Shown one piece after another: positions 11,011 to 56,615 of a stretch of DNA of 64,000 nt. Position 1 is the stretch's first letter; the number at the start of each line of letters is the position of its first letter. The notes under the pieces were generated by a model. The model did not search any database. It saw nothing but the letters and a program-made list of their open reading frames with translations, and was not told where the DNA came from. The stretch spans positions 62,001-126,000 of the forward strand of contig NZ_JANUGQ010000008.1 in the NCBI RefSeq assembly GCF_024756275.1, given 5' to 3'. The stretch is from Streptomyces pyxinae. GTDB taxonomy: Bacteria; Actinomycetota; Actinomycetes; Streptomycetales; Streptomycetaceae. Both the position numbers and the translations under genes were made by a program.

Positions 11011-11763
11011 CCCCGGCCACCGGTGGGCGGGGCCCGGCCCACCCGGGCCCGAGCCCCGCCCACTCCGCCGCGCCAGGTCCCGGTCCACGCGCCCGCCCTG
11101 GCTCTCCGGGCCCGGGGCCGCCCGCCCGGTCTCCGGTGCAGGTTCCCCCGAGCCGGGCCCACTCGTCCGCACCCGGGCTCGCGCCGGGCCCGAGGGCCGC
11201 CCCGGTCCACCCGGGCCCCGCCCGCTCCACGCGCCCCGGCCTTCCGGGCCTGGGACCACCCGCCCGGTCTCCGGCACAGGCTCCCCGGAGCCGGGCCCCG
11301 TCCACGCACCCGCCTTGACTCTCGGGGCCCGGGGGCCGCCCGCCCGGTCTCTCCGGCGCAGGCTCCCCGGAGCCGGGCCCACTCGTCCGGACTTCGGGCC
11401 CGGGCCCAATCGTCCGGACCCGGACCCGAAGGACACCCACGCCTCAGGAATCGCGCCCCGCAAGGCGCCCGGCCCGAAGACCGCCCCGCGCCCGCGAGGC
11501 TCCCGGTCCCCGGCAGGTCGCCGTCGCCTCCGTCCCGGACCCTTCGGAAGGCGTCTCGCCCGGGCGGCTCCGGCCGCCGGTTCCAGGACCGACGGGGGCT
11601 CCGGTACCGGCTGAGGCCCCTCGGGCACGGGTCTCGTCCGTGCGCGGGGCCGCGTCCCGCGCTACGGAGGGCGGGCGCCACCCGCCCCGGCCGCCGCCGT
11701 CGGGGGGCACCGGGCTCCGGAAGGGGCCCGGCCCCCGCACCGCCCCGGGCCCGGGCCCCGTCC
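11011..11763. repeat. Gene-free region with three degenerate repeats
   Basis: No gene is supported in these 750 bases. Three copies of a roughly 70-bp imperfect unit lie at 11103-11170, 11242-11310 and 11319-11390. Each contains CCCGCCCGGTCTCCGG, then GCAGGCTCCCCGGAGCCGGG, and copies one and three continue with CCCACTCGTCCG. The open frames here on both strands are repetitive Pro/Gly/Arg text and lack start signals. The stretch from 11440 to 11763 is GC-rich sequence in which I see nothing further. Confidence 0.75.
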
Positions 11764-14567: not shown

Positions 14568-14822
14568 AAAGCCCAAGGGTACGGGGTCGCCCGTGGCGGC
14601 CCCAGCCCCTCCGGGAACGATCCGGCAACGGCCCGCGTCCCCCATACCAACTCCACCCCGGGGTCCTCTACTCCCTGGGCCGGACGCACGGCCGCGGCCA
14701 GTCGTTCTTGGGGAGGAGCGCATCCGTATCGGAACAGTGCGGTAATGGAGGCAGGGCCCGTACTGTGGGTCCTGTTGGAGTGCCGGAGCCGAGTCCGTCA
14801 GAAAAGGGGGCGCGCGAAGCCC

Positions 14823-23197: not shown

Positions 23198-23219
23198 CCT
23201 TTCTTCTCAGACACCTTTT

Positions 23220-23232
23220 CGTCTATTTGACG
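23220..23232. promoter_or_regulatory. Palindrome CGTC-N5-GACG, copy 1, upstream of nadA
   Basis: CGTC TATTT GACG lies 23 bases before the nadA start, where a repressor would block transcription. An AT-rich stretch next to it (TATGATAGATAG on the nadA strand, 23234-23245) is a likely -10 region. Confidence 0.55.
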
Positions 23233-23254
23233 CTATCTATCATAACCCGCTTCA

Positions 23255-23267
23255 CGTCACTTTGACG
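23255..23267. promoter_or_regulatory. Palindrome CGTC-N5-GACG, copy 2, upstream of nadA
   Basis: CGTC ACTTT GACG; in this copy the symmetry extends inward to CGTCA CTT TGACG. It starts 35 bases from copy 1. Confidence 0.55.
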
Positions 23268-23276
23268 ATGCCCATA

Positions 23277-23291
23277 GCGTCGATGTGACGC
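23277..23291. promoter_or_regulatory. Palindrome GCGTC-N5-GACGC, copy 3, upstream of nadA
   Basis: GCGTC GATGT GACGC, perfect over 15 bases including the spacer. It starts (CGTC at 23278) 23 bases from copy 2. Confidence 0.55.
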
Positions 23292-23593
23292 GTTCGCCGG
23301 ACGACCCCACGACCACCGGTCACCACCCACTCACGTACACGGGAGTGTCGGCCCAGGCCCGGCCCGCCCGGCCACCCACTCGCGGACAGGGGAGTGTCGG
23401 CCCAGGCCCGGGCCGCCCGGCCACCCCGTCACGGACGGATGAGTGACGGCCCGGGGTGGGGCCGTGCAGGGTCGCCCCCGCAGGAGACGGCGGTCATACC
23501 CGGCCCACTCATCCCGGTAACGGTTGTTCCGCCGGCTCCGAGGAGGTGAGCCCGGAGGGGCCACGCCCCCACCCCACCGGCAGCAAACAACCC

Positions 23594-23875
23594 GCACCGC
23601 GCAAAGAACCGCAACGCACCCCCCACGGAACCGCGACGCACCCCGGACCCGCACCGCGCACACAAGCGCAACGCCCCACCCACAGAACCGCGACCCACCC
23701 CGGACGCGCACCGCGCACACAACCGCAGCGCACCACCCACGGAAGCGCGACCCACCCCGGACGCGCACCACGCACGCAAGCGCAACGCACCGCCCACCAG
23801 GCACACCACCCACAGCGGCGCACCGCGCACAGAACCGCAACGCACCACCCACCGAGGCGCACCGGACCCCGCCGT
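23594..23875 (+). repeat. 57-bp tandem array within element copy 1
   Basis: Five starts of GCACC(G/A)CGCA spaced 57, 57, 57 and 55 bases. Each unit continues with a GCGCAACGC-type core, then CACCCAC, then CCCCGGAC. Because 57 is 19 codons, all frames look like open repetitive ORFs (Arg-Thr-Ala-His or Cys-Ala-Val-Arg rich), which I regard as by-products. Confidence 0.8.
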
Positions 23876-23896
23876 GCCCCGCACGGCAAGGCGGGG
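23867..23896. terminator. Hairpin closing element copy 1
   Basis: CCCCGCC-G-TGCC pairs with GGCA-A-GGCGGGG around the loop CCGCAC, with one internal mismatch. It may act as a terminator just upstream of the erpA promoter region. Confidence 0.55.
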
Positions 23897-24024
23897 CTGG
23901 GGCCGACTACGCCACATGTGCGAGCATGAAGAGGTAAGGCACGCGCTCGGCCCGGAATGAATCCGCGGCCCCGCCGGTTAGCACCGTCGGCAAGCAGTCT
24001 CCGTACAACCCGGGAGAGAAGCAG

Positions 24025-40928: not shown

Positions 40929-41033
40929 GGTCATGAGCGACAGCGACTACGGCCCCGGCCCGCTGTCCGGCAACCCTCCGTCCGTGGCGGGGTGCCCCGG
41001 GTGAAGACCTGGTCGTGGACAGAAAGTCCACGA
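40929..41033 (+). promoter_or_regulatory. SAM-IV riboswitch
   Basis: The text GGTCATGAGCGACAGCGA, CCGGCAACCCTCCG, GGCGGGGTGCCCCGGGTGAA and GACCTGG, in this order, is the S-adenosylmethionine-binding core as I know it from actinobacterial SAM-IV leaders. GGTC (40929-40932) pairs with GACC (41006-41009). It is followed by an 8-bp hairpin with AGAAA loop (41013-41033), a feature that separates class IV from class I. It precedes a class V aminotransferase gene, so methionine or SAM sufficiency should lower that gene's expression. Confidence 0.88.
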
Positions 41034-41106
41034 CAAGCGCGGACCCCTTGGCATCCCGCGATGCCGGCGGCCCGGGGTCCTGGTCCTTCGAGGGAGCAGC
41101 AGTCTC

Positions 41107-55790: not shown

Positions 55791-56039
55791 TCAGGGCACC
55801 AGCACCACCTTGCCCAGGTTCCGCCGCTCCTCGATGATCCGGTGTGCCCGGGCCGCCTCCGCCAGGGGCAGCTCGGCGTGCACCGGCGCCCGCAGTGCGC
55901 CGCTCCGGTGCAGCTCCCACAGCTCGTCCCGCCACCGGGCGTACAGCTCCGGCTTCCCGAGCGCCACGGCGGCCATCCGGAAGCCGATGGCCGAGGCGCC
56001 CCGCACCAGCAGCTCGTACGCCTCGATCACCCCGCCGCC
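55791..56039 (-). pseudogene. C-terminal remnant of a zinc-free alcohol dehydrogenase/quinone oxidoreductase gene
   Basis: About 80 codons remain: VIEAYELLVRGASAIGFRMA, YARWRDELWELHRSGALR, then LPLAEAARAHRIIEERR and NLGKVVLVP, an unmistakable end of an NADPH:quinone-oxidoreductase-type medium-chain dehydrogenase (normally about 320 residues). Upstream of this the frame runs straight into the dispersed repeat element at about 56040, and no Rossmann domain or GroES-like domain is found beyond it. A GTG at 56028-56030 could in principle start a 79-residue fragment. It is best seen as a gene cut by insertion or deletion at the repeat. Confidence 0.85.
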
Positions 56040-56059
56040 CGAGCGTGGGTACGGCCCTG

Positions 56060-56607
56060 AGGGGCCCCGGCCCCCCACCCACGGACAGGGGAGTGACGGC
56101 CCGGGGTCGGGCCGCCCGGCCACCCACGCACGGATACGGGAGTGTCGGGCCGGGGTGAGGCCGCCCGGCCACCCACGCAGGTGCACGGGATTGACGGGCC
56201 GGGGTGGGGCCGTGCAGGGTCGCCCCCGCAGGAGACGGCGGTCATACCCGGCCGACAAGACCGGTAACGGTTGTTCCGCCGGCTCCGAGGAGGTGAGCCC
56301 GGAGGGGCCACGCCCCCACCCCACCGGCAGCAAACAACCCGCACCGCGCAAAGAACCGCAACGCACCACCCACAGAAGCGCAACGCACCCCGGACGCGCA
56401 CCGCGCACGCAAGCGCAACGCGCCACCCACCGAGGCGCACCGCGCACGGAACCGCAACGCCCCACCCCCACCAGGGCACACCACCCACCGAGGCGCACCG
56501 CACACAGAACCGCAACGCACCACCCACAAGGCGCCCCATCCACCAGGGCGCGCCGCGCACGGAACCGCAACGCCCCACCCACCGCACAGCGCCGCGCCTC
56601 GCGCGGC
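56060..56607 (+). repeat. Composite dispersed repeat element, copy 2
   Basis: Same order of parts and same orientation as copy 1: three units starting at 56075, 56120 and 56169 (45- and 49-bp steps), identical blocks 56201-56253 and 56261-56367 separated by seven variable bases, an array starting at 56341 with units also at 56398, 56437, 56495 and about 56550, and a closing hairpin at 56591-56607. It lies between the truncated oxidoreductase and the 3' end of the acyl-CoA ligase gene. Confidence 0.85.
56591..56607. terminator. Hairpin closing element copy 2
   Basis: GCCGCGC pairs exactly with GCGCGGC around CTC, nine bases beyond the acyl-CoA ligase stop on the opposite strand; it can serve as that gene's terminator. 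Confidence 0.6.
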
Positions 56608-56615
56608 AGCGCGGC

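What the first reader, a model, noticed from the sequence alone, without database searches (positions are those of the whole stretch)
23323..23897. Large composite non-coding repeat element present twice, 33 kb apart
Copy 1 (23323-23897) and copy 2 (56060-56607) share a four-part plan: about 49-bp units x3, two blocks of 53 and 107 nt that are identical between copies, an array of about 57-bp units, and a terminal hairpin. The flanking arrays have diverged while the central 160 nt have not, which indicates selection on the core, gene conversion, or recent copying with fast array evolution. It contains no transposase, no terminal inverted repeats and no credible gene. I know of no described element with this plan.
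Basis: seen in the sequence. Interest (0 to 1): 0.8.

Follow-up and report, generated by a model that had tools for sequence, protein, structure and literature searches.

The report
Dispersed folding repeat in Streptomyces
A roughly 120-base non-coding sequence that folds into a hairpin with one almost unchanging inner loop is scattered, in up to about 60 copies, through the chromosomes of some Streptomyces species; it looks like a mobile or formerly mobile element of an undescribed type, and no enzyme that moves it was found.

Summary
In detail: two ~575-bp composites share identical blocks of 55 and 107 nt between diverged 49- and 57-bp arrays. But the conserved unit is the central ~120-nt core, not the four-part composite. 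It occurs 7 times in this genome, 31-63 times in three other Streptomyces, and in at least 20 of 392 sampled congeners. The arrays are optional shells. Eleven relatives read at the copy-1 site lack the element. The core folds into a rod with strong compensatory change (24 of 30 pairs) around a near-invariant loop, GCA opposite GA plus a C-A mismatch (229 of 232 sequences). G-T exceeds A-C, so one strand carries the structure. Of 71 neighbouring pairs, 60 are inverted with 5' ends inward, none the opposite. No Rfam family matches; no transposase was linked; Y1 transposase is absent from 14 of 16 genomes, including this one. Best reading: a non-autonomous, REPIN-like mobile repeat whose core is recognised as folded single strand (DNA or RNA) by an unidentified protein. 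Mover, ends and expression are untested.

The parts
23307..23914 (+). Copy 1: whole inserted stretch between the nadA and erpA-like upstream regions (ends uncertain by about 15 bp)
   Evidence: 11 relatives read lack it between the conserved TCGATGTGACG and GTGTGCGAGCATGAA blocks
23323..23452 (+). Copy 1: 49-bp tandem units, accessory shell
   Evidence: flanks of the copies on C6, C23 and C1 are different
23448..23580 (+). Copy 1: structured core
   Evidence: covariance models R1 and R2; alignment A6
23469..23475 (+). Helix P2, 5' strand (pairs with 23546-23553 with one bulged G)
   Evidence: register; the single-sequence fold pairs its inner half
23476..23482 (+). Near-invariant loop, 5' strand CCCCGCA
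23483..23494 (+). Helix P3, 5' strand (pairs with 23528-23539)
23528..23539 (+). Helix P3, 3' strand
23540..23545 (+). Near-invariant loop, 3' strand GAGGAG (GA opposite GCA; A opposite C)
23546..23553 (+). Helix P2, 3' strand
23593..23852 (+). Copy 1: 57-bp tandem units, accessory shell
23869..23896 (+). Copy 1: short terminal hairpin
   Evidence: folded; homology with copy 2 not established
56045..56612 (+). Copy 2: composite, behind a 3' fragment of an oxidoreductase gene
56066..56212 (+). Copy 2: 49-bp tandem units; one stretch matches the core's 5' end at 80% over about 50 bp
56196..56327 (+). Copy 2: structured core (CCCCGCA 56224-56230, GAGGAG 56287-56292)
56419..56582 (+). Copy 2: 55-57-bp tandem units

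Best explanation
The core is the recognised unit of a non-autonomous, dispersed repeat that works like a REPIN. It folds, on one strand, into a ~120-nt rod: outer stem P1, helix P2, a near-invariant asymmetric loop (GCA opposite GA, with a C-A mismatch two base pairs away), and helix P3. A protein supplied in trans recognises this loop in the folded single strand and copies or moves the element, singly or as an inverted doublet with 5' ends inward. Insertions are seldom found between divergent genes. Flanking DNA then grows species-specific palindromic or tandem shells, such as the 49- and 57-bp arrays here. SHOWN: dispersal, multicopy families, sites empty in relatives, covariation, near-invariant loop, strand asymmetry, doublet polarity, differing shells. 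INFERRED: movement by a trans-acting protein, and that the recognised form is single-stranded DNA (RNA remains possible).
For: Copies: 7 here; in eight other genomes 57, 31, 15, 9, 6, 2, 1 and 0; 63 exact 5'-motif hits in one single-contig 7.1-Mb genome, reversed-pattern control 0 in all 12 genomes. Prevalence, this genome included: 20 of 392 genus genomes; 21 of 293 order genomes, 20 of them in this genus; lower bounds. Sites empty in relatives: 11 of 11 read at copy 1, chosen from the 18 same-genus relatives; at copy 2, 5 of 8 relatives read have only 21-129 bp there. Structure: 82.4% of cells paired, 24 of 30 pairs changed on both sides, covariation score 0.336 against 0.120 in shuffles and at most 0.102 in slid versions. 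Loop intact in 229 of 232 distinct hits (partly selected, see Tried and rejected). G-T 136 versus A-C 6 at the first 11 positions of P3 in 144 sequences. Doublets: 60 of 71 adjacent pairs are (-,+), none (+,-). The closest copies within a species reach identity 1.0, 1.0, 0.985 and 0.897 in four species, against at most 0.939 between species.
Against: No mover found: among ORFs within 2 kb of 105 hits in 80 loci, the recurrent ones came mostly from shared (orthologous) loci and none looked like a transposase by eye (not family-searched). Y1 transposase (PF01797) occurs in only 2 of 16 genomes, not in this one nor in those with 57 and 63 copies; but both genomes that have it (G179, G155) carry the element, though not near those genes. 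No target-site duplication or exact ends were established. Mean core identity hardly differs within (0.76-0.81) and between (0.74-0.79) species, and shared gaps hold reciprocal best matches in only 3 of 20 comparisons, which also fits old retention plus gene conversion. Both strands of copy 1 fold about equally well (z -2.1 and -2.2), so the strand claim rests on G-T/A-C counts, which count sequences, not events.
Confidence: 0.5

Rival explanations
1. A host-useful RNA element: when read through, the rod acts in 3' untranslated RNA (stabiliser, processing site or terminator) through a host RNA-binding protein or nuclease; copies spread by duplication and are kept by selection.
For: Covariation with a near-invariant loop and G-U bias; of 86 classified copies 34 lie between convergent genes and only 4 between divergent genes (no genome-wide expectation was computed); some intergenic gaps are occupied in several species.
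Against: No orientation preference among codirectional neighbours, 24 with and 24 against; patchy presence, 20 of 392 congeners by model R1; inverted doublets put both strands in any transcript; copy 1 sits between divergent genes.
Confidence: 0.25
2. A trans-acting structured RNA (RNP partner), or an element copied through its own RNA, like a bacterial SINE.
For: Conserved loop motif and G-U bias.
Against: No conserved promoter was seen, though none was systematically sought; reverse transcriptases were not tested for; high copy number with degenerate members is unusual for an RNA gene.
Confidence: 0.12
3. Local duplication or gene conversion between two copies, with no wider family.
For: Identical 55- and 107-nt blocks.
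Against: Seven copies on five contigs and multicopy families in many species.
Confidence: 0.03

Closest known systems
REP / BIME / REPIN with TnpA-REP (RAYT) (PMC8266576, PMC3733652, PMC3116915; passages seen)
   Same: Many intergenic copies; inverted doublets with a spacer; imperfect hairpin with a conserved mismatch; evidence for one folded strand; compensatory changes; tandem clusters.
   Different: Core ~120 nt rather than 20-50; no GTAG or CGTC tag enriched; Y1 transposase absent from 14 of 16 genomes; the constant part is an inner loop.
Small mobile sequences such as RU-1/RU-2/RU-3 and MITEs (PMC2759123, PMC2229807; search listing only)
   Same: About 100-170 bp, non-coding, intergenic.
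   Different: No parent insertion sequence found; target duplication not tested; internal helices covary here.
Stable 3'-UTR palindromes in S. coelicolor transcript maps (PMC4681348; passages seen)
   Same: Stable hairpins downstream of Streptomyces genes.
   Different: The passages seen treat them as probable decay intermediates and name no repeat family of this kind.
IS110-family bridge RNA (recalled, no call)
   Same: Mobile-element RNA with internal loops.
   Different: No recombinase-like gene noticed by eye among recurrent neighbours; not searched by family.

Membership tests
REP / REPIN | Palindrome of 20-50 nt | tested here: not met
   Core models have 130 and 119 positions
REP / REPIN | GTAG (or CGTC) tetranucleotide at one end | tested here: not met
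   GTAG in 4 and CGTC in 40 of 233 upstream 32-mers, against background frequencies 0.035 and 0.265; downstream, either strand, 2 and 40. The complement GACG is enriched upstream, 122 of 233
REP / REPIN | RAYT (Y1) transposase in the genome, often flanked by the repeat | tested here: not met
   PF01797 in 2 of 16 genomes, none in G000, G006 or G210; the three genes in G179 and G155 have no listed core near them
REP / REPIN | Inverted doublets separated by a short spacer | tested here: met
   60 of 71 adjacent pairs; 15 pairs in G179
REP / REPIN | Recognition of one folded single strand | tested here: inconclusive
   G-T commoner than A-C on one strand; no binding data
MITE | Terminal inverted repeats shared with an autonomous transposon | tested here: inconclusive
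   A complementary outer stem exists; no recurrent transposase-like ORF beside copies, judged by eye
MITE | Target-site duplication | not tested
   Ends known only to about 15 bp
Any Rfam 15 family | Match at gathering score | tested here: not met
   No element match in the window; at E up to 1 on 14 loci only three microRNA matches far below their gathering scores, two of them over cores
IS91 / Helitron-like | Y2 transposase in the genome | tested here: inconclusive
   PF04986 in 0 of 16, but the control rang nowhere

The most novel reading that the evidence does not exclude
A bacterial element that spreads through its own folded strand, recognised by a still unknown protein at a GCA/GA-plus-C-A loop: in effect a new class of single-strand mobile element, possibly copied through RNA like a SINE, restricted to streptomycetes.
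Probability: 0.15. Interest if true: 0.88.

Novelty: new variant of a known kind. Interest (0 to 1): 0.62.

Why it matters
Streptomyces genomes are mined intensively, yet a repeat with up to about 60 copies and strong structural covariation matches no Rfam family and turned up in none of the listings of my literature searches. It gives a clean recognition motif with which to fish for the protein that binds or moves it. If the mover is a new enzyme, it may act on folded single strands without the known Y1 machinery. The elements also seem to break assemblies: at least five of the 15 cores of G155 lie within 150 bp of a contig end.

Tried and rejected
RAYT/Y1 mobilisation: rejected for this genome and for the genomes with 57 and 63 copies; of the 16 genomes, 10 carry the element and 6 showed no R1 match, and both Y1 genomes are among the 10. 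IS91-like Y2: inconclusive. Phage or plasmid carriage: no exact pattern match in viral contigs, none in phages with a G179 composite, none in plasmids with copy 1, one partial plasmid match with the G179 composite. Autonomous element with a gene between or beside cores: none noticed, by eye. Protein coding: of the ORFs listed over the cores only the reverse-strand frame at copy 2 was family-searched, and it matches only in its oxidoreductase end. Replication-strand bias in G210: none seen (45 unpaired copies, Fisher p 0.54, origin assumed near the middle and not located). R2's third, weak window hit (14575-14609, E 0.2) was not counted.

My first P2 register left a false C-A pair (31 of 65 sequences at one column pair); a one-base bulge resolves it, but and model R2 use the old register. 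The 40 lowest hits (32-46 bits) appear to be true cores read on the opposite strand and were dropped; searches use the best 103 of 105, 96 of 136 and 56 of 62 hits. Of 303 aligned hits, 218 passed the loop regex and 66 remained after dereplication; one, L151, was left out of A6. Because that regex demands much of the loop, I recounted the loop on the CM alignments; but the named loci had been fetched with a pattern containing it, so part of that count is selected too. Of the 92 stretches only the first 80 were analysed.

Full report
WHAT IS THERE. The two composites are real. Copy 1 (23323-23897) and copy 2 (56060-56607) share exact blocks of 107 and 55 nt; identity is 97% in the core, 80% in the 49-bp part and 84% in the 57-bp part, and the arrays are as described. 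Copy 1 lies between divergent nadA and an Fe-S biosynthesis gene (Pfam NadA and Fe-S_biosyn). Copy 2 lies between a glycosyltransferase and an AMP-binding enzyme gene, directly behind an 83-codon C-terminal piece of a zinc-binding dehydrogenase.

THE UNIT IS THE CORE. The whole genome (7.38 Mb, 78 contigs) holds seven cores: three on the window's contig and one each on C10, C6, C23 and C1. With copy 1 plus flanks as query, similarity extends into arrays at copy 2 and at the copies on C77 (near 186 kb) and C10, but is confined to the core or little more at the other three; the copies on C6 and C1 have other tandem units and that on C23 almost none (by eye). The arrays are therefore accessory.

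AN INSERTION. In all 11 relatives read, out of 18 same-genus relatives, the conserved blocks upstream of nadA and erpA are separated by a short, variable stretch without a core, instead of about 620 bp. At copy 2, 5 of 8 relatives read have 21-129 bp between the two genes; the other three have 389-642 bp that I did not analyse further. G006, read separately, has a truncated core of its own and an extra gene there. The insertion thus followed divergence from these relatives, or the element was lost from all of them.

A FAMILY. All counts of genomes here include this one. A BLAST search found hits in 15 of 199 genus genomes, several of them weak. A covariance model from 25 sequences gave 57, 31, 15, 9, 6, 2, 1 and 0 matches in eight other genomes, and matches in 20 of 392 genus genomes and in 21 of 293 order genomes, 20 in this genus and one in another genus of the same family. 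Few candidates per genome were scored in the large searches, so these are lower bounds. A pattern scan of named genomes returned 92 stretches; those listed come from S. noursei B-3066, S. ficellus AS11, S. lavendofoliae JCM 4391 and strains CB03234, WAC05374, or43, PR69, ISL-1 and NBC_01481. One single-contig 7.1-Mb genome (G210) has 63 exact 5'-motif hits, none in its first fifth; the reversed pattern hits nothing.

STRUCTURE. On 65 divergent sequences and 30 stated pairs, 82.4% of cells pair (shuffles 69.6%), 24 pairs change on both sides (15.9), and the covariation score is 0.336 (shuffles 0.120; best slid version 0.102). The loop CCCCGCA opposite GAGGAG is the constant part: GCA, GA and the C-A mismatch are intact in 229 of 232 distinct hits (partly selected). 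The pairs beside the mismatch switch between C-G and G-C (4 and 2 of 65) while the mismatch stays. In some divergent genomes the region between P1 and P2, mismatched here, reads by eye as a long paired helix (L337, L338; L354-L366). G-T exceeds A-C on the strand written here: 136 to 6 at P3 positions 0-10 in 144 sequences (all 12 positions give 137 to 48, the A-C mainly at the last, poorly paired position); 49 to 14 of 924 cells in 66 dereplicated sequences; 134 to 51 on A6, 31 of the A-C being the register artefact. These count sequences, not events. Thermodynamic folding alone does not separate the strands.

ORGANISATION. Of 71 adjacent pairs in 183 loci, 60 are (-,+), 11 tandem and none (+,-); some places are represented by two loci. 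G179 has 15 such doublets, embedded in a nested inverted repeat roughly 450 bp long whose outer part (GTCCTCAATCGCCGGACGGGCTTG) is a different palindrome. In CB03234 another palindrome surrounds the cores: 35 occurrences within 300 bp against 5 elsewhere in the fetched loci, two mismatches allowed. So the core is constant and the shell changes with the lineage; the 49- and 57-bp arrays are this genome's shell.

GENE CONTEXT. Of 105 hits in 80 named loci (two of them weak, 35-40 bits), 34 lie between convergent genes, 48 between codirectional genes (24 with, 24 against) and 4 between divergent genes; 12 are at locus edges and 7 inside predicted frames (a simple GC3 gene caller, no expectation computed). 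The closest copies within a species are more alike (up to 1.0) than any between species (at most 0.939), though in ficellus the within-species maximum is only 0.897, and means hardly differ; several gaps are occupied in more than one species, with reciprocal best matches in 3 of 20 comparisons. This fits bursts with reinsertion or gene conversion.

MECHANISM. Dispersal, insertion, polarity and strand-specific structure are shown; movement by a trans-acting protein that reads the loop in a folded strand is inferred. No mover was found: no transposase-like recurrent neighbour by eye, Y1 transposase in 2 of 16 genomes and not here, Y2 inconclusive. REP elements are the best analogue. They too are recognised strand-specifically, with a conserved mismatch needed in E. 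coli (PMC8266576, passages), and form inverted doublets with compensatory changes (PMC3116915, passages). Length, tag and transposase tests are not met, so this works like a REPIN but is not filed as one.

LITERATURE. Searches showed no description of this family in their listings; the library is open-access only. In the main texts of PMC2267715 and PMC3733652, two surveys of stem-loop or palindromic repeats, the words Streptomyces and Actinobacteria do not occur.

Noticed in passing
window 40929-41045: SAM-IV riboswitch at 110.5 bits, the only Rfam gathering match in the window.
   Followed up: no
window 55794-56042: C-terminal 83 codons of a zinc-binding dehydrogenase gene, cut off where copy 2 begins; similar DNA lies elsewhere in several other genomes. 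Possible gene-fragment capture or remnant of a broken gene.
   Followed up: partly
window 23216-23290: Long conserved stretch upstream of nadA (TTTTCGTC...TGACGCTATCTATCATAAC...TCGATGTGACG), largely shared by the 11 relatives read; looks like an operator.
   Followed up: no
L207:5320-5470: Three CRISPR-like repeats (GGGGCCATCCCCGCGTGCGCGGGGAGCAG, the first partial) about 140 bp from the core on C23; the resemblance to type I-E repeats is recalled.
   Followed up: no
L189-L203; L097, L114: Separate Streptomyces palindrome GTCCTCAANCGCCGGACGGGCTTG nested around the cores in G179 and or43.
   Followed up: partly
L120:2924-3093: A second palindrome (GGGGGTCCCCCC...CTCGAGCGAAGCCGAGAGCTTGGGGGAG) inside the P3 arm of a core.
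   Followed up: no
L177, L178, L091, L107: Cores upstream of a lipoprotein gene that I take, from memory of the sequence, for a phosphate-binding protein, in four genomes: a shared or reused site.
   Followed up: partly
window 11094-11341: 138-bp tandem duplication (1.8 copies, score 297).
   Followed up: no
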